Shown here: positions 237 to 5,713 of the stretch, piece after piece
Numbering within the stretch: position 1 is the first letter of the stretch
Layout: every line of letters begins with the position of its first letter
Assembly (NCBI GenBank): GCA_023250585.1
Contig: JAHFAK010000125.1
Span: forward strand, 1 to 5,713
Direction of reading: 5' to 3'
Source of the DNA: Deltaproteobacteria bacterium
GTDB taxonomy: Bacteria > Bdellovibrionota_F > JAHFAK01
Length of the DNA stretch: 5,713 bases
Notes under the pieces: model-generated
Told to the model about the DNA's origin: nothing
The model's input: the letters and a program-made list of their open reading frames with translations, nothing else
Database searches by the model: none
Made by a program: the position numbers and the translations under genes

Positions 237-3200
237 TCAAATCTTTTCTCTTCTACAAATCTCCAAGTAAATCTTATTTATTTCAGATTCAATTTCTTTA
301 GTTTTACTGATATCAGAATAGTTTTTATGTGCAAGTTTTGACAAACTTACGAGCTTTTTGTGAGCCTCATTTTTCTCGGAATAATAAGGTATAAATATAG
401 GCGGTCTTATTTTAAAACTCCTTGAGTCTGAGGAATTTATAATAAAATCATGAGTTATTGGTGCATTAAGGATTGCACAGATAAAATGAGCTTCATTTGA
501 AGTTATTAGACTTCCATCTTCTCTTTCTGAAATCGACACTGCATGGTTTTGAAACACAGGTCTTTTGAGTCCTCCCCAGCTAGTTATAACTTCTTCAACT
601 ACAGTTGCTTGCCACTTTGTGTTATCACGAAAAGCTACATAGCTTTTAGCAAAGCTATATTTACCAACCCGTGCAAGGGCATAAAATTCTTGATCCCTTT
701 TCCCTATTATTTTTTCATTGTACGTAGTTTGAGCATCAATTGATTTCTTATTATTAATTAGATATTTGGCTAAGTATGGAGCCTTCTTACGTAAATCAAT
801 AAGCCTTAAAGGTACCCTTGTACTAAATGATTCCTCATAAGGGAAAGGCACTAGAAATGAAGGGGTATCTTCTATGTGCCAACGTTTAATATTTATCCCT
901 TTTATTAATGGGTGTACATATTTTTTTTCAAGTAATACATCTTGTGCAGCGATTTTATGTTTTGAACGATCATTCTGATAGTTCTTTAAATAGATTTCAT
1001 CACTACGTTTTGGCATATCTGGATCTATTTCAAACAAGAAGAGTTCTTGCGGATAAAACTCAATACCCTCTCTACCAATATAATTGGATACACCAGAAAT
1101 TATTCTAAAATGTTCTAGTGCTGTTGAAGTGTCAGCATATGAGAAGTTCGTACTTGTTTTAATACATTGTCCAAGGACTTTATGTTCTACTTTAAAAAAA
1201 TCTTTAACTTGGTCAAAACGATTATATTGGTTTATCTTATCTATTGTATATTCTGATTTTTTTAGAAACATAGACACAGGTATACCTTTTGTATAATCAG
1301 CTTTGTTTGATGAAATAAAATAGGTAAGGAATTTGTGTTGGACAGGTTGAAATGGATGACCAGATTTAGTCCAATCAAATATCTTTTGAAAGTATAATCT
1401 TCTACCATTTGATTGATAAAAATTCCTAAAGCCCTCATATGTTTGAAGAAGCATAAGATTTTGTGGCATTAAGAATCCTAAAACTCCTTTTTCAGAGAGC
1501 CAATTATCTGCCGCAACGTTTGCTATTAATGCACAAATATTCAAATTAATTCCACCTGTGAGTCTATCCCCTGAAAAAAGATGTCGCTCAATACACAAAG
1601 ACTTAATACGATTCCTGTATCCTTCTGGTAAATTACGCCAATCGATCCAAGGTGGGTTGCCTGCTATGATGTCAAACTTTCCCAGGCTTGCAGTAGTTAA
1701 GAAATTAGTTACGATTCTAGCCCATATTCCATTCCATTCGTTTCGCTCTAATTCTATAAACTTTTTCGCAAGTTCATCAATTTTTTTAGCTATTGCAGGA
1801 ATCAAATCTTCTGGCTTCGCAAGTCCTTTAATTTTTTCAGAAACAGCTTGCCAATCTAATGATTTTATATCAAATTCAACTTCAGTCATTACTTTCGAAA
1901 ATTGATCAGTCTTTTTAACAACGCTTTTTGGCAAAACAATATCAATATATCCTTTCAAAGTTTTAATATGGTATCTAAGGCAGGATATATTTTCAATTTC
2001 TAATGGCTCAGGGACATAAGATGAATCACCAAGGTAAACCGGAATATTAAATTGTAGCCCTTCTTCAATCAAGTGAGCAGTATTTATAAAATAATTAACT
2101 CTCCCAGTTAAAACCGATAATGGATTCAGATCAATCCCTTTTACACGATCCAATACCATTTTAAGGCGGTTAGTTTTCTCCTCAGACTGTGTTTCTTCAA
2201 GAACTCGTTGAATAGCGGCTATTAAAAACGTACCAGAGCCTAAGGTTGGGTCAAGCAATTTCCATAAAGTTTTTTTATTTTGCAAGATAGCATCTTCAAC
2301 CAAATTATCTGCGAGCCAAGATGGTGTATAGAATTCACCCAAACTGTGTCTAACTTTAGAAGGTACTATTCGTTGGTATAGTTCTTTAAAAAGGTCGTGT
2401 GTTTTTACTTGTTCATGCACAAGAACTTTATCCTCATATTTAGAAAGTAATGCAATAACCTCTATTATTTTATTGTAAATCTGTTTATTCCATTGTTGAG
2501 TTGAAGAATACCATGAAAAATAATCACCTTCTAATAAATTGTTTATTCCTATAGTTCTAAAGATTTCTCCATCTTCAAGAGATTGCATTTTCATTTGAAG
2601 AACAGTATTTTTGGCTTGTGCAAGATTGCCAAATTCAACAGTATTCTTATTGAAGTAAACTTTGCTAACAACTTTGAAAGCTATCAATTTGACTATAATC
2701 GCATAAGTGGTTTGTAATGAATACAAAGCCAGATATTCTTGTTTATTTGTTTTTATTTCCACATCAACTGCCTCGGCAAGCGACTGCCTCCTTTCTTGGA
2801 TGTCCTTTTGTTGCGAAGTATCATCATGCGAAAGTTTAAATAGTTCTTGCCATTCTTCAAACAACATTTTTGTTTTAGGTTGTAATTTCTTAAGAAGAGT
2901 AACGTAAAATATTTTTGTTAGCTGTTTAGCCAAATTATCATCTAGTGGTTCGCAAAAATCTCGAATAAGATTATCTGAGGTTAGTGCAATCTGTTCTAAT
3001 AAAACTATGGTTTTTATAACTCGATCTAAAATTATTGGGGAGATTTGTCCCCACGCTTCTGTATATATTTTCCCACCTTCATTTCTAATAAATCTGCAAT
3101 GAATGCCATCAGTAACTAAACCAAGATAATCGGTTGGATATTTTGCATTTAAGCCATGTAAATATTCTTCAATCTGCCGAGAAGCTTTCGTTTTCTGAGA

Positions 3201-3497
3201 AGAAGTTCTAAGTTTGCTACTATGCTTGAACTCAATAACAAAAGCACCATACTTACTATCAATTCTTCCCTTTGTAACATGCCTTTCAGTACCAATGAGT
3301 TTTTCTTTCTCTGGATAATATTTAAGCCCAAGTTCATTATTGATAAAAGAAAAAAGATTTAATTCAAAACTACTTACAACTGATGCTTCATTATCAGCCG
3401 TTTCAGATTTTCTCTTAATATCAAGAGTTAATGTTGCCAATTTTTTTCGATAATCGGGTGAAAATAGTTTTTCTGTAAAAATTTGGATTCCTGCCAT
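237..3497 (-). CDS. Type IIG-like restriction-modification enzyme (nuclease, adenine methyltransferase and specificity region in one chain)
   Basis: This 1086-residue protein is predicted to cut unmodified DNA and to methylate adenine in its own recognition site, using S-adenosylmethionine, as a one-gene defence system. An N-terminal PD-(D/E)XK nuclease is seen as GRID (Asp80) followed by VIEFK (Glu89, Lys91), the D-X8-E-X-K layout of MmeI-like nucleases, with Gln108 downstream. Residues about 150-380 are a mostly helical connector. The methyltransferase shows motif X GEFYTP (387-392), motif I DPTLGSGTF (416-424), an acidic motif II in KGIDLNP (453-459, Asp456) and catalytic motif IV NPPW (614-617). 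That order is gamma-class N6-adenine, Eco57I family. Residues about 800-1035 fit a target-recognition domain and end in a helical tail. There is no helicase, so it is not a classical Type I or Type III subunit. An in-frame TAA shortly upstream fixes ATG 3497 as the first ATG; no Shine-Dalgarno site is visible. The reading frame is intact, so the enzyme may be active. The recognition sequence cannot be predicted. Confidence 0.88.
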   Translation of the reverse strand: MAGIQIFTEKLFSPDYRKKLATLTLDIKRKSETADNEASVVSSFELNLFSFINNELGLKYYPEKEKLIGTERHVTKGRIDSKYGAFVIEFKHSSKLRTSSQKTKASRQIEEYLHGLNAKYPTDYLGLVTDGIHCRFIRNEGGKIYTEAWGQISPIILDRVIKTIVLLEQIALTSDNLIRDFCEPLDDNLAKQLTKIFYVTLLKKLQPKTKMLFEEWQELFKLSHDDTSQQKDIQERRQSLAEAVDVEIKTNKQEYLALYSLQTTYAIIVKLIAFKVVSKVYFNKNTVEFGNLAQAKNTVLQMKMQSLEDGEIFRTIGINNLLEGDYFSWYSSTQQWNKQIYNKIIEVIALLSKYEDKVLVHEQVKTHDLFKELYQRIVPSKVRHSLGEFYTPSWLADNLVEDAILQNKKTLWKLLDPTLGSGTFLIAAIQRVLEETQSEEKTNRLKMVLDRVKGIDLNPLSVLTGRVNYFINTAHLIEEGLQFNIPVYLGDSSYVPEPLEIENISCLRYHIKTLKGYIDIVLPKSVVKKTDQFSKVMTEVEFDIKSLDWQAVSEKIKGLAKPEDLIPAIAKKIDELAKKFIELERNEWNGIWARIVTNFLTTASLGKFDIIAGNPPWIDWRNLPEGYRNRIKSLCIERHLFSGDRLTGGINLNICALIANVAADNWLSEKGVLGFLMPQNLMLLQTYEGFRNFYQSNGRRLYFQKIFDWTKSGHPFQPVQHKFLTYFISSNKADYTKGIPVSMFLKKSEYTIDKINQYNRFDQVKDFFKVEHKVLGQCIKTSTNFSYADTSTALEHFRIISGVSNYIGREGIEFYPQELFLFEIDPDMPKRSDEIYLKNYQNDRSKHKIAAQDVLLEKKYVHPLIKGINIKRWHIEDTPSFLVPFPYEESFSTRVPLRLIDLRKKAPYLAKYLINNKKSIDAQTTYNEKIIGKRDQEFYALARVGKYSFAKSYVAFRDNTKWQATVVEEVITSWGGLKRPVFQNHAVSISEREDGSLITSNEAHFICAILNAPITHDFIINSSDSRSFKIRPPIFIPYYSEKNEAHKKLVSLSKLAHKNYSDISKTKEIESEINKIYLEICRREKI

Positions 3498-3635: not shown

Positions 3636-4242
3636 TTACAAATCACCAAAACAAATCCAACCAATTCCTTGATGAAAGTTTTCTAATATTTTTAATTCAG
3701 CTATCAGTTAGTTGGTATATAAACCCAAATGCTTTAAAAGACTTGATCATGGACAAAGAAAAACTTGAATGGGTAAAAGAAGGGCTAAGAGATAGTCATA
3801 ATGAAGAAAAGAAAATTAGGGAAGAAATTATTTAGAACTTGAAAATGAATTGAGGCTTGTAAGAGAAAGACTTGATAAGTTATATATCGATAAGCTAGAG
3901 GGAAAAATTACTGAGGATTTTTGGAGTCGCACAAGTGATAACTGGCTTAAAAGACAACATGAACTGACAAGTACTATCGAACAACATAAAAATGCAAACA
4001 TTGAATATCTCAATGATGGTATTTCCTTGCTAGATAAGGCAAATAACTTATATAAAGAATATAGGCTCAAGGAAGAAATTGATGAAAAGAGAAAACTTTT
4101 AAATATTGTAGTTTCGAACTCGGTATTAAATGGCTCAAACCTAGTTGTAGAGTACAACGAACCGTTTTTAATTTTCTCAAATATCACAAACACTGGAAAC
4201 TGGCGGGGCCGACGAGACTCGAACTCGCGACCTCATGCGTGA
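3632..4242 (+). pseudogene. Serine site-specific recombinase remnant, C-terminal part only, frameshifted
   Basis: Two adjacent frames together give the end of a large serine recombinase. Frame one (ATG 3632 to TAG 3833-3835) is convincing only from about 3728, where NALKDLIMDKEKLEWVKEGL and RDSHNEEKKIREE match the stretch before the coiled coil. Frame two continues from 3835 as ELENELRLVRERLDKLYIDK then LEGKI, the coiled-coil hallmark of zinc-ribbon recombinases, and later KRKLLNIVVSNSVL. Adding one T in the TTT at 3831-3833 joins the frames as EEIILELENEL. The resolvase domain with its catalytic serine, the DNA-binding domain and the zinc ribbon are all missing; about 170 residues remain of the 500 or so usual for this family. 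The end, WRGRRDSNSRPHA, is the antisense of tRNA-Asp. The gene is most likely dead. The first 30 or so residues, MITNHQ..., are not recognisable and may be chance sequence or deletion-junction filler. Confidence 0.72.
3728..4242 (+). mobile_element. Probable tRNA-proximal end of a degraded integrated element
   Basis: The recombinase remnant runs directly into the 3' end of tRNA-Asp, the usual arrangement when an element integrates at a tRNA and its recombinase gene sits at the element edge. The restriction-modification gene to the left is the likely cargo. The far end was not located: neither the 113-236 spacer nor any other part of the window shows a direct copy of the tRNA 3' end. The interval given covers only the recognisable recombinase portion and its tRNA overlap. 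The element may extend left to about position 113 or may have been trimmed. Confidence 0.4.
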
Positions 4243-4277
4243 CAGGCATGCGTTCTAACCAACTGAACTACGACCCC
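4201..4277 (-). tRNA. tRNA-Asp (anticodon GTC), CCA encoded
   Basis: Read on the minus strand, the gene starts GGGGTCG and ends CGGCCCC-G-CCA; the 7-bp acceptor stem pairs with one T-G wobble. The D arm is GTTC/GAAC. The anticodon arm is CATGC/GCATG with loop CTGTCAC, so the anticodon is GTC (aspartate) with T33 and A37. The variable region is AGGTC. The T arm is GCGAG/CTCGT around TTCGAGT. Total length is 77 with the 3' CCA in the DNA. All arms are complete, so the gene should be functional even though it served as an apparent integration site. The opposite strand encodes the last 13 residues of the recombinase remnant. Confidence 0.97.
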
Positions 4278-4295
4278 TTTTTTGTATAGCGCTCC

Positions 4296-4324
4296 GCCCA
4301 GCCCTTTCTGGGAAAGAGCTGGGC
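4296..4324 (+). terminator. Strong GC-rich hairpin, possible terminator facing away from the tRNA
   Basis: GCCCAGC (4296-4302) pairs with GCTGGGC (4318-4324). After one C-A mismatch, CTTTC (4304-4308) pairs with GAAAG (4312-4316) around a TGG loop. On the plus strand TTTT follows only after five bases (4330-4333), so it is an imperfect Rho-independent terminator; it could end rightward transcription coming through the recombinase remnant. On the minus strand it lies about 19 bases before the tRNA-Asp 5' end and could sit in the tRNA leader or promoter, with a TATACA (4288-4283) between them. Confidence 0.5.
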
Positions 4325-4357
4325 TCCACTTTTATCGATGTCACTTTACGATGTTCT

Positions 4358-4380
4358 GGTTTTTCGCTTACGGAAAAACC
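4358..4380. repeat. Perfect 8-bp inverted repeat with 7-base loop
   Basis: GGTTTTTC (4358-4365) and GAAAAACC (4373-4380) are exact reverse complements around the loop GCTTACG. No T-run follows on either strand, so a terminator is unlikely. It lies in the 261-base gene-free stretch between the tRNA and the decarboxylase gene. It could be an RNA hairpin in a leader or a protein-binding site. The rest of that stretch (4381-4490) shows only AT-rich sequence. Confidence 0.4.
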
Positions 4381-4493
4381 TTCACTTGAAATTTGGTTTA
4401 AAGATTTAAAGAATCAGGATTCAACAAAATCATAATTATTATATCTTATTGATTGATATTACTTGTTTTAAGCCCAATTTTATTTCTTACGCG

Positions 4494-4516
4494 TTATAGA
4501 AAAATCTTTTCTATAA
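4494..4516. promoter_or_regulatory. Perfect 10-bp palindrome upstream of the decarboxylase gene, candidate operator
   Basis: TTATAGAAAA (4494-4503) and TTTTCTATAA (4507-4516) are exact reverse complements with a three-base spacer ATC. The repeat ends 22 bases before the ATG at 4539. A -10-like TAGAAT (4525-4530) lies just after it, so the palindrome would cover the -35 region, a typical place for a repressor site. In RNA it would form a weak A/U hairpin. No regulator gene is in the window. Confidence 0.45.
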
Positions 4517-4524
4517 AAAACCGT

Positions 4525-4530
4525 TAGAAT
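4525..4530 (+). promoter_or_regulatory. Candidate -10 box giving a nearly leaderless transcript
   Basis: TAGAAT ends eight bases before the ATG at 4539, so transcription would begin at or within a base or two of the start codon. No Shine-Dalgarno sequence is present between it and the ATG, which is consistent with a leaderless message. No clear -35 box is seen; the palindrome at 4494-4516 occupies that position. Confidence 0.3.
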
Positions 4531-4538
4531 AATACATT

Positions 4539-5471
4539 ATGCGAATCGTAATTACAGGCGGAGCGGGATTTATAGGTTCACACCTTGTAGAAAAATTTCT
4601 TTCTCTTGATCATCAGGTTGTTGTTATTGATAATTTGATTACAGGAAAATCTGAGAACTTAACTCTCCATAAAAATTTGATTTTTATAGAACAAAATATT
4701 TGTAAATATACTGAAGTAGAAGGAAAAGTAGACTGGGTTATGCATTTTGCCAGCCCGGCTTCACCAATTGATTTTAAAAAATTACCCATTCAAATTTTAA
4801 AAGTCGGCTCAAGCGGTACGATAAATGCTCTTGGCATTGCAAAAGTAAAAAAAGCAAAGTTTTTTCTTGCCAGCACTTCTGAAGTTTATGGAGATCCCCT
4901 GGAACACCCTCAGAAAGAGACTTATGTAGGAAATGTAGATCCAATTTCTGAGAGATCTGTTTATGATGAAGCAAAACGCTTTGCTGAAGCTACTACTATG
5001 GCATATCACAGATTTCATAAAATTGACACTAGGATTATCCGTATCTTTAACACCTATGGTCCCCGTATGCGTCCTGAAGATGGAAGAGTTATTTCAAATT
5101 TTATTAGCCAAGCTCTTACAAATAAACCAATTACAGTTTATGGCGATGGTACTCAAACAAGAAGCTTTCAGTATGTGACTGACTTGGTCGAAGGTGTGGT
5201 TCGTTTAATGGATGTAGATTTTTATGATCCGGTAAACCTTGGAAACCCTATTGAATATACTATTTTAGACCTGGCAAAAATTATTAAAAAACTTACAAGT
5301 TCAAACAGCGAAATTGTTTTTAAACCGTTGCCTGAAGCAGATCCAAAACGCAGAAGACCAGACATATCCAGAGCAAAACAAATGTTAAAATGGGAGCCAA
5401 AAATCTCTCTGGAAGATGGTTTAATGAAAATGATTGAATATTACAAGCCATTATTACAATTACAAAAGTAG
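4539..5471 (+). CDS. UDP-glucuronate decarboxylase-like NAD-dependent sugar-nucleotide enzyme
   Basis: This 310-residue extended short-chain dehydrogenase/reductase most likely converts UDP-glucuronate to UDP-xylose and CO2 in the cytoplasm, supplying a sugar for surface glycans. The N-terminal NAD site is GGAGFIG (7-13), with Asp31 at the end of the second strand. HFASPASP (69-76) is characteristic of the UDP-glucuronate decarboxylase branch. STSEVYGDP (112-120) carries the Ser-Glu pair linked to decarboxylation in ArnA and UXS enzymes. The catalytic YxxxK is Tyr142/Lys146 in [20 protein letters not shown] (169-177), [10 protein letters not shown] (184-193), RSFQYVTD (208-215) and the Arg-rich DPKRRRPDI (268-276) are also as expected. 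Length is normal for the soluble bacterial form, with no membrane anchor. The [20 protein letters not shown] segment (123-142) departs slightly from the common GNVNPIGPRS form. A related decarboxylase/epimerase is the alternative. The start has no Shine-Dalgarno site. An M55 peptidase gene follows after 41 bases without a terminator. Confidence 0.85.
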
Positions 5472-5512
5472 GGACATACCAATGTGTTTGCCCGTTCGTT
5501 ATGAGAAGAAGT

Positions 5513-5713
5513 ATGAAAATCCTAATCTCAGCAGATCTTGAAGGTGTAAATGGTGTAGCTCACACTGATCAAATTTATCCTGAAGGGAAATATTATAAAG
5601 AGACTTTGATCAGATGGTCAAAAGAATTAAATGCAATTGTAGATGGTTTACATGAAGCCGGAGTAAAAGAAATAGTTATAAACGATTCTCATAATCACTC
5701 TCGAAACCTAGAT
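5513..5713 (+). CDS. M55-family D-aminopeptidase (DppA-like), N-terminal part
   Basis: The first 67 residues are present; the gene runs off the window. M55 peptidases are zinc enzymes that remove D-amino acids from the N-terminus of short peptides, as B. subtilis DppA does with D-Ala-D-Ala and D-Ala-Gly-Gly. The start MKILISADLEGVNGV gives Asp8 and Glu10, and NDSH places His60. These are the positions of three zinc ligands known in DppA (Asp8, Glu10, His60). The remaining ligands and the proposed nucleophile histidine lie beyond the window. The start ATG at 5513 is chosen because it gives the family's usual N-terminus and is preceded by a weak purine-rich AGAAG (5504-5508). An in-frame ATG at 5501 would add MRRS. 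With 41 bases after the decarboxylase stop and no terminator, the two genes could share a transcript. A role in recycling peptidoglycan-derived peptides is plausible but inferred. Confidence 0.85.
   Translation, partial: MKILISADLEGVNGVAHTDQIYPEGKYYKETLIRWSKELNAIVDGLHEAGVKEIVINDSHNHSRNLD

What the first reader, a model, noticed from the sequence alone, without database searches (positions are those of the whole stretch)
4195..4277. Recombinase C-terminus is encoded exactly by the antisense strand of tRNA-Asp
The codon for W in the terminal WRGRRDSNSRPHA begins at 4201, the very base complementary to the last A of the tRNA's CCA. The recombinase frame then runs 13 codons into the tRNA and stops in its anticodon arm. 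This marks the tRNA 3' end as the probable attachment site, and means the recombinase tail was supplied by the host on integration. Integration at tRNA 3' ends is well known for tyrosine integrases; a serine-type recombinase doing it, with its own stop codon inside the tRNA, is less usual.
Basis: partly seen in the sequence, partly recalled or inferred. Interest (0 to 1): 0.6.

Follow-up and report, generated by a model that had tools for sequence, protein, structure and literature searches.

The report
tRNA-targeting serine recombinase, tail swapped
The window holds the broken end of a mobile-element recombinase that inserted at the 3' end of a tRNA-Asp gene; comparison with relatives shows a widespread group of serine recombinases that inserts at many tRNA genes and, on insertion, exchanges its own protein tail for one read off the back of the tRNA.

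Summary
The 'recombinase', however, is only a frameshifted C-terminal remnant. Intact relatives are large serine recombinases ending the same way in tRNA-Asp, Asn, Gln, Arg, Glu, Ser, Ala, Leu, Tyr and tmRNA genes across many bacteria. Phage relatives not at a tRNA keep a conserved native tail. In close pairs the DNA is 69-92% identical up to the crossover and 42-53% after it. The T-loop motif GAAC lies 5 bp further out in attP than in attL, the published attP/attB rule for serine integrases. In integrated elements the native tail was found displaced to the far end (attR): clear in G066, G130, G151; probable in G176, G287. Shared bases put the crossover at tRNA nt 70-73. The W/CCA is therefore the element's (no other tRNA read in this genome encodes CCA); the rest of the tail is the host's. 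Serine recombinases at tRNAs and integrase tail swaps each have precedents. New are the breadth, the +5 T-loop register, and element-borne CCA and terminators. Whether the swap regulates the enzyme is untested.

The parts
3734..3841 (+). First part of the recombinase remnant (coiled-coil region), in the third reading frame; homologous to L003 residues 339-368
   Evidence: 43-44% identity to L003/L008; searches show the frame change near 3836
3838..4200 (+). Second part of the remnant: end of the coiled coil and C-terminal strand pair, element-derived, open frame 1 base away from the first part
   Evidence: 38-43% identity to full-length relatives, E 1e-28 to 5e-33
4201..4203 (+). TGG: the W codon, antisense of the tRNA's encoded CCA; inferred to be element-derived
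   Evidence: no CCA in 32 other tRNA genes of the genome; TGG lies in the same place in attP of relatives
4204..4207 (.). Inferred crossover zone, antisense of tRNA nt 73-70; most likely dinucleotide GG at 4205-4206
   Evidence: inference from attL/attR shared k-mers in relatives and from the attP/attB geometry
4208..4239 (+). Host-derived end of the reading frame (rest of WRGRRDSNSRPHA), antisense of the acceptor stem, T arm and anticodon arm of the tRNA
   Evidence: by analogy with attP/attL pairs
4219..4224 (+). TCGAAC, antisense of the T-loop TTCGA motif; proposed zinc-ribbon-domain half-site of attB
   Evidence: 17 nt from N73 here, 22 nt in attP of 17 of 18 phage relatives
4240..4242 (+). 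Stop codon TGA, overlapping the antisense of the anticodon
4201..4277 (-). tRNA-Asp (GTC) gene, the integration target, restored with an encoded CCA
237..3497 (-). Type IIG restriction-modification enzyme next to the remnant; cargo or later insertion
   Evidence: PADLOC REase_MTase_IIG E 4e-157 over the full length; Pfam Eco57I

Best explanation
The window shows the decayed attL end of an element integrated at the 3' end of a tRNA-Asp gene by a large serine recombinase. In this group attP lies inside the 3' end of the recombinase gene and carries a copy of the tRNA 3' end (in many members with the CCA). The recombinase pairs attP with a tRNA gene and recombines at tRNA nt 70-73. The side next to the recombinase keeps the element's bases (the CCA and, often, a new terminator for the tRNA). 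The far side is the host tRNA, so the reading frame now runs on through the antisense of the acceptor stem, T arm and anticodon arm and ends wherever that strand has a stop. The native 30-40 residue tail, a predicted pair of helices, is moved to the other end of the element. Shown in relatives: the attP/attL pairs, the displaced tails, the +5 register, selection on the native tail. Inferred: that the T-loop motif is what the zinc-ribbon domain reads, that the tail swap changes enzyme activity, and that the window's own remnant went through the same event before it lost its N-terminus.
For: Homologues end in antisense tRNA in plasmids, phages and genomes: tRNA-Asp, Glu, Arg, Gln, Asn, Tyr, Leu, Ala, Ser, Gly, His and tmRNA. 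Integrated/non-integrated pairs are 69-92% identical over the 300 nt up to the core and 42-53% after it. GAAC is 22 nt from the NGG core in 17 of 18 native-tail loci and 17 nt in integrated ones, equal to the 5-bp shift of Rutherford 2013 (PMC3783163). attR with the displaced native tail: G066, which rejoins in frame to KMEVKFQCSNFEKWIKTL... like its free relatives; G130 at 740258, an 8-mer shared with the tRNA plus GAAC at exactly +25, 0.007 expected in 60 kb; G151, a 9-mer found only at attL and attR in 20 kb; G176 and G287 weaker. Displaced tRNA terminators precede the G130 and G176 attR. Only the window's tRNA encodes CCA among 33 read in the genome. Native tails are under purifying selection. 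Terminator-like hairpins at 24 of 43 sites against 21 of 140 control stretches. Domains: Resolvase, Recombinase, zinc ribbon; fold: serine integrases.
Against: No att site of the window's own element was found: the contig ends at base 1 of the window and no close relative with an empty site is held. The window has no terminator-like hairpin and no catalytic domain. attR was looked for and not found in G058, G003, G124 and G349. The motif is GAAC only in G130, G066 and the phage loci; G151 and G287 have GCAAC and G176 GACAC at the expected place. One relative (L143) has a tyrosine integrase gene next door that could have done the integration there. No biochemical test.
Confidence: 0.85

Rival explanations
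1. A tyrosine integrase of the element does the tRNA targeting and the serine recombinase merely sits at the end of the element.
For: tRNA 3' ends are the classic targets of tyrosine integrases (PMC4383910); L143 carries a tyrosine integrase directly upstream.
Against: Of ten upstream neighbours tested only L143's is an integrase. attP lies inside the serine recombinase gene and shows the 5-bp shift peculiar to serine integrases. The identity at attL/attR is only 6-9 bp, whereas tyrosine elements typically duplicate longer tRNA segments (from general knowledge).
Confidence: 0.06
2. The overlap is an accident: the recombinase gene lost its stop codon and runs into whatever lies downstream, here a tRNA.
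For: The window's gene is a decayed remnant, and stop positions inside the tRNAs vary freely.
Against: All eight best homologues of an independent sample do the same, at the same register, in different tRNAs; close relatives not at a tRNA have a constrained native tail instead.
Confidence: 0.02
3. The contig is foreign to this genome (a binning error), so the encoded CCA says nothing about the element.
For: The window's tRNA-Asp is the only one of 33 with CCA; the contig is short and has no close relative.
Against: The tRNA shares an unbroken T-arm stretch with the genome's two other tRNA-Asp genes and is 92-93% identical to them; the trinucleotide make-up of 4278-5713 is typical of the genome (0.120; host pieces 0.102-0.210). 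attP of relatives carries the TGG as well.
Confidence: 0.08
4. The native-tail forms are not free attP but elements integrated elsewhere, so the tails say nothing about the pre-integration state.
For: The viral contigs are fragments without proven circularity.
Against: In G066 and G130 the same kind of tail is found at the far end of the integrated element, joined at the same bases; free relatives of a tRNA-integrated copy differ exactly from the core on.
Confidence: 0.05

Closest known systems
Large serine recombinases / serine integrases (phiC31, Bxb1, A118/LI, TP901-1)
   Same: Resolvase, Recombinase and zinc-ribbon domains with a long coiled coil; ZD motif 5 bp further out in attP than in attB; short core
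   Different: Target is the 3' end of tRNA/tmRNA genes; attP lies inside the recombinase gene
Mycobacterium AICE serine recombinases in tRNA-Leu (Ghinet 2011, PMC3218068)
   Same: Serine recombinases with the Recombinase domain integrating into a tRNA gene
   Different: One tRNA in one genus; no tail exchange described in the text read; whether it belongs to this group was not tested
phiRSM1/phiRSM3 of Ralstonia (Askora 2011; PMC4471427)
   Same: Serine recombinase, attP equal to 13 bp of the 3' end of tRNA-Ser
   Different: Resolvase/invertase-like enzyme; attP lies between orf14 and orf15, not inside the recombinase gene
Streptococcus ICE serine integrases in rumA (PMC4701971)
   Same: Integration exchanges the 3' ends of target and serine integrase genes and so changes the integrase C-terminus
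   Different: Target is a protein gene; no tRNA is restored
Phage Mx8 of Myxococcus (Tojo 1996, Magrini 1999, as cited in PMC4383910 and PMC4701971)
   Same: attP inside the integrase gene; a 112-residue tail is replaced by 13 residues and the enzyme is less active
   Different: Tyrosine integrase

Membership tests
Large serine recombinase (serine integrase) | Resolvase + Recombinase + zinc-ribbon domains | tested here: met
   Six full-length relatives, all three Pfam domains above cut-off. The window's own remnant lacks all three.
Large serine recombinase (serine integrase) | Fold of known serine integrases | tested here: met
   Model of L107 (pLDDT 80, pTM 0.41) matches SPbeta-type/Bxb1/phiC31 integrase complexes and LI integrase 4kis, E 3e-17 to 7e-12; low TM-scores because domain arrangement is flexible
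Large serine recombinase (serine integrase) | ZD motif 5 bp further from the core in attP than in attB | tested here: met
   22 against 17 nt, 17 of 18 native-tail loci; motif assignment to the ZD is inferred
Large serine recombinase (serine integrase) | Catalyses attP x attB recombination | not testable with these tools
   needs an assay
tRNA-integrating element | Element lies between a restored tRNA gene and a displaced copy of its 3' end or flank | tested here: met
   G130 and G176, with displaced terminators; G151, G287, G066 with shared k-mers. Not found in G058, G003, G124, G349; not testable for the window's own element.
tRNA-integrating element of the tyrosine-integrase type | Tyrosine integrase next to the att site | tested here: not met
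   Present in 1 (L143) of 10 neighbours tested
Element whose integration changes the integrase C-terminus (Mx8, rumA ICEs) | attP inside the integrase gene, tail exchanged on integration | tested here: met
   an effect on activity is not testable here

The most novel reading that the evidence does not exclude
The tail exchange is a built-in switch: a conserved two-helix tail needed by the free element's recombinase is cut off on integration and replaced by host antisense-tRNA residues, so the integrated copy makes a different enzyme (for instance one that integrates poorly or depends on a partner for excision). The group finds its targets by reading the near-universal T-loop motif, which would explain how one kind of enzyme moves between so many tRNA genes.
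Probability: 0.35. Interest if true: 0.75.

Novelty: new variant of a known kind. Interest (0 to 1): 0.55.

Why it matters
[quoted passage not shown] A whole group that does so across phyla, with att sites that can be written down from sequence alone, makes such islands findable, and gives serine integrases whose natural targets are conserved tRNA genes. It also gives many natural cases in which to test whether a C-terminal swap controls a serine integrase, which so far rests on one tyrosine phage enzyme and a suggestion for streptococcal ICEs. A practical point: recombinase proteins ending in ..WRGRRDSNSRPHA-like residues in databases are integration scars, not conserved tails.

Tried and rejected
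Own-genome search for a second copy of the tRNA 3' end: only the two other tRNA-Asp genes and a 17-bp T-arm match in tRNA-Leu, so no attR for the window. Direct repeats inside the window: nothing att-like. PDB hits of the remnant to pentatricopeptide designs are coiled-coil noise. attR search in G058 (100 kb), G003, G124, G349: no convincing candidate; a G003 8-mer at 91150 lacks the motif at +25. Empty-site relatives of G058: the genus holds no other genome. phiRSM-like recombinases as members of this group: a short tail query found none, which is a weak test. Membership of the conserved stop position in a regulatory scheme: rejected, stops vary from 12 to 109 nt. The claim that every relative sits at a tRNA: rejected, 13 of 30 loci in the genome sample do not overlap one (two of these have a tRNA nearby), mostly the more distant ones.

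Full report
What is there. tRNA-Asp(GTC) lies on the minus strand at 4277..4201, CCA encoded. The + strand frame that enters it reads WRGRRDSNSRPHA* from 4201 to 4242, with W opposite CCA and the stop over the anticodon. Upstream, the frame belongs to a recombinase, but only to its C-terminal third: two pieces homologous to residues 339-368 and 381-503 of the 506-aa relative L003, in different frames, with no Pfam domain left. A type IIG restriction-modification gene stands where the rest should be. The window's recombinase is therefore dead.

What the relatives show. Full-length relatives carry the Resolvase, Recombinase and zinc-ribbon domains of large serine recombinases, and a model of one finds serine integrase structures. 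Relatives in G058, G003, G016, Heliobacteriaceae and Zixibacteria MAGs, a Legionella and a Neochlamydia plasmid, and gut phage contigs all end inside antisense tRNA-Asp, Glu, Arg, Arg, Gln, Asn, Tyr, Glu and Leu; further phage contigs end in tRNA-Gln, tRNA-Ala and tmRNA. In a separate sample of 386 genomes, 17 of the 30 loci fetched, and all of the eight best-scoring, do so. Two of the 30 (L152, L161) are the G058 and G003 genes already seen. The more distant loci are mixed, so this is a property of part of the serine recombinase family, not of all of it. The tree mixes targets, for example Asp and Gln in sister rows, so targets have changed often.

Free and integrated forms. Eighteen phage loci have no tRNA at the end of the recombinase gene but a native tail of about 30-40 residues. 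Pairs of integrated and native-tail loci (L062/L059, L067/L057, L069/L071, L076/L074) are 69-92% identical over the last 300 nt up to a short NGG core and 42-53% identical after it, about what unrelated sequence gives in such an alignment. The native tails accumulate silent changes faster than amino-acid changes (pN/pS about 0.1-0.55, small counts), so they are translated and constrained. In the model the core lies in a disordered linker (480-487) and the tail is two helices, 491-501 and 504-513.

The register. In integrated copies the T-loop antisense GAAC lies 17 nt from the N73 position by the geometry of a tRNA. In 17 of 18 native-tail loci it lies 22 nt from the homologous NGG. These loci are related, so they are not 18 independent trials; they fall into about eleven groups by eye, and the chance of GAAC at a fixed place is about 1 in 256 for each. 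A shift of 5 bp between attP and attB is what Rutherford and colleagues showed for the zinc-ribbon motif of serine integrases, at bp 16-24 in attP and 11-19 in attB (PMC3783163). With a GG core at nt 72-71, TCGAAC falls at bp 14-19 in attB and 19-24 in attP, inside those ranges. That the zinc ribbon reads this motif is my inference.

The displaced tail. The model predicts the native tail at the other end of an integrated element. G066, integrated in tRNA-Ala, has it at its far end, joined at TGGAGG to the C-terminus of a second recombinase, as if two elements had integrated one after the other; rejoined, it reads KMEVKFQCSNFEKWIKTL..., colinear with free relatives L074 and L129. In G130 the 8-mer TGGCTCCG of the tRNA-Asn 3' end occurs once more 18 kb away, with GAAC at +25 (tRNA: +20), an in-frame tail WLRFAETYRTLL..., and in front of it what looks like the tRNA's own displaced terminator. 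In G151 the 9-mer TGGCTCCCC occurs in 20 kb only at the tRNA and 8 kb away, followed by WLPQVDAFRNFL.... G176 (28.8 kb, displaced terminator) and G287 (22.6 kb) are similar but with inexact motifs; these two were chosen from several k-mer hits by their tails and are weaker. The shared k-mers overlap at tRNA nt 70-73. In G058, G003, G124 and G349 I found no attR.

What the element gives back. In 16 integrated copies laid out, eleven have the TGG (CCA) next to the core, and many attP sites carry it too. In the window's genome none of 32 other tRNA genes read, two tRNA-Asp included, encodes CCA, and the composition and the tRNA's similarity argue against a foreign contig. A terminator-like hairpin in the tRNA's direction lies in the antisense of the recombinase 3' end at 24 of 43 sites, against 21 of 140 control stretches of such genes (Fisher p 3e-7); related sites count several times, so the p-value is optimistic. 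Among the window's nearest intact relatives tested it is present in seven (L003, L008, L153, L154, L156, L157, L158) and absent in L155 and the window.

What is known. [quoted passage not shown] Ghinet et al. (2011) had reported eight Mycobacterium AICE serine recombinases in tRNA-Leu, and cited phiRSM1 in tRNA-Ser, calling such cases rare (PMC3218068; PMC4471427). Exchange of the integrase C-terminus is known for Mx8 and for streptococcal ICE serine integrases in rumA (PMC4701971). The literature search covered open-licence papers only, so a description of this group elsewhere cannot be excluded. I therefore call it a new variant of a known kind.

Confidence. That this group integrates at tRNA 3' ends through the serine recombinase with exchange of its tail: high, from sequence alone. 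That the window's remnant is the scar of such an event: likely, without direct proof. That the exchange regulates the enzyme: open. One earlier notebook entry says 19 of 30 loci; the correct count is 17.

Noticed in passing
window 237-3497: A full-length type IIG restriction-modification gene (PADLOC REase_MTase_IIG, E 4e-157) stands beside the recombinase remnant, as cargo or as a later insertion.
   Followed up: partly
L099 (G066 far end), L060 (G068), L182-L184 (G287): Two different serine recombinase elements appear stacked at one tRNA gene, the older one's recombinase now ending in the younger one's displaced tail.
   Followed up: partly
L003, L008, L145, L146, L153, L154, L158, upstream of the tRNA 3' end: Terminator-like hairpins for the tRNA are written in the antisense of the recombinase's own coding sequence (the KPFD..LAKG stretch in L003 and L008).
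   Followed up: partly
L143 931-1971: A tyrosine integrase gene lies 26 bp upstream of the serine recombinase on the Legionella adelaidensis plasmid; why both are kept is unclear.
   Followed up: no
L162, L167, L173 and the attR tails of G130, G151, G176, G287: Native C-termini of serine recombinases, also of some not at a tRNA, share a loose motif W-x-x-x-V-[DE]-x-[FI]-R-x-[FL]; the W codon TGG doubles as the antisense of CCA in the tRNA-targeting ones.
   Followed up: no
window 4539-5471 and 5501-5713: Downstream of the tRNA lie an NAD-dependent sugar epimerase/dehydratase gene and the start of an M55 D-aminopeptidase gene, ordinary chromosomal genes.
   Followed up: no
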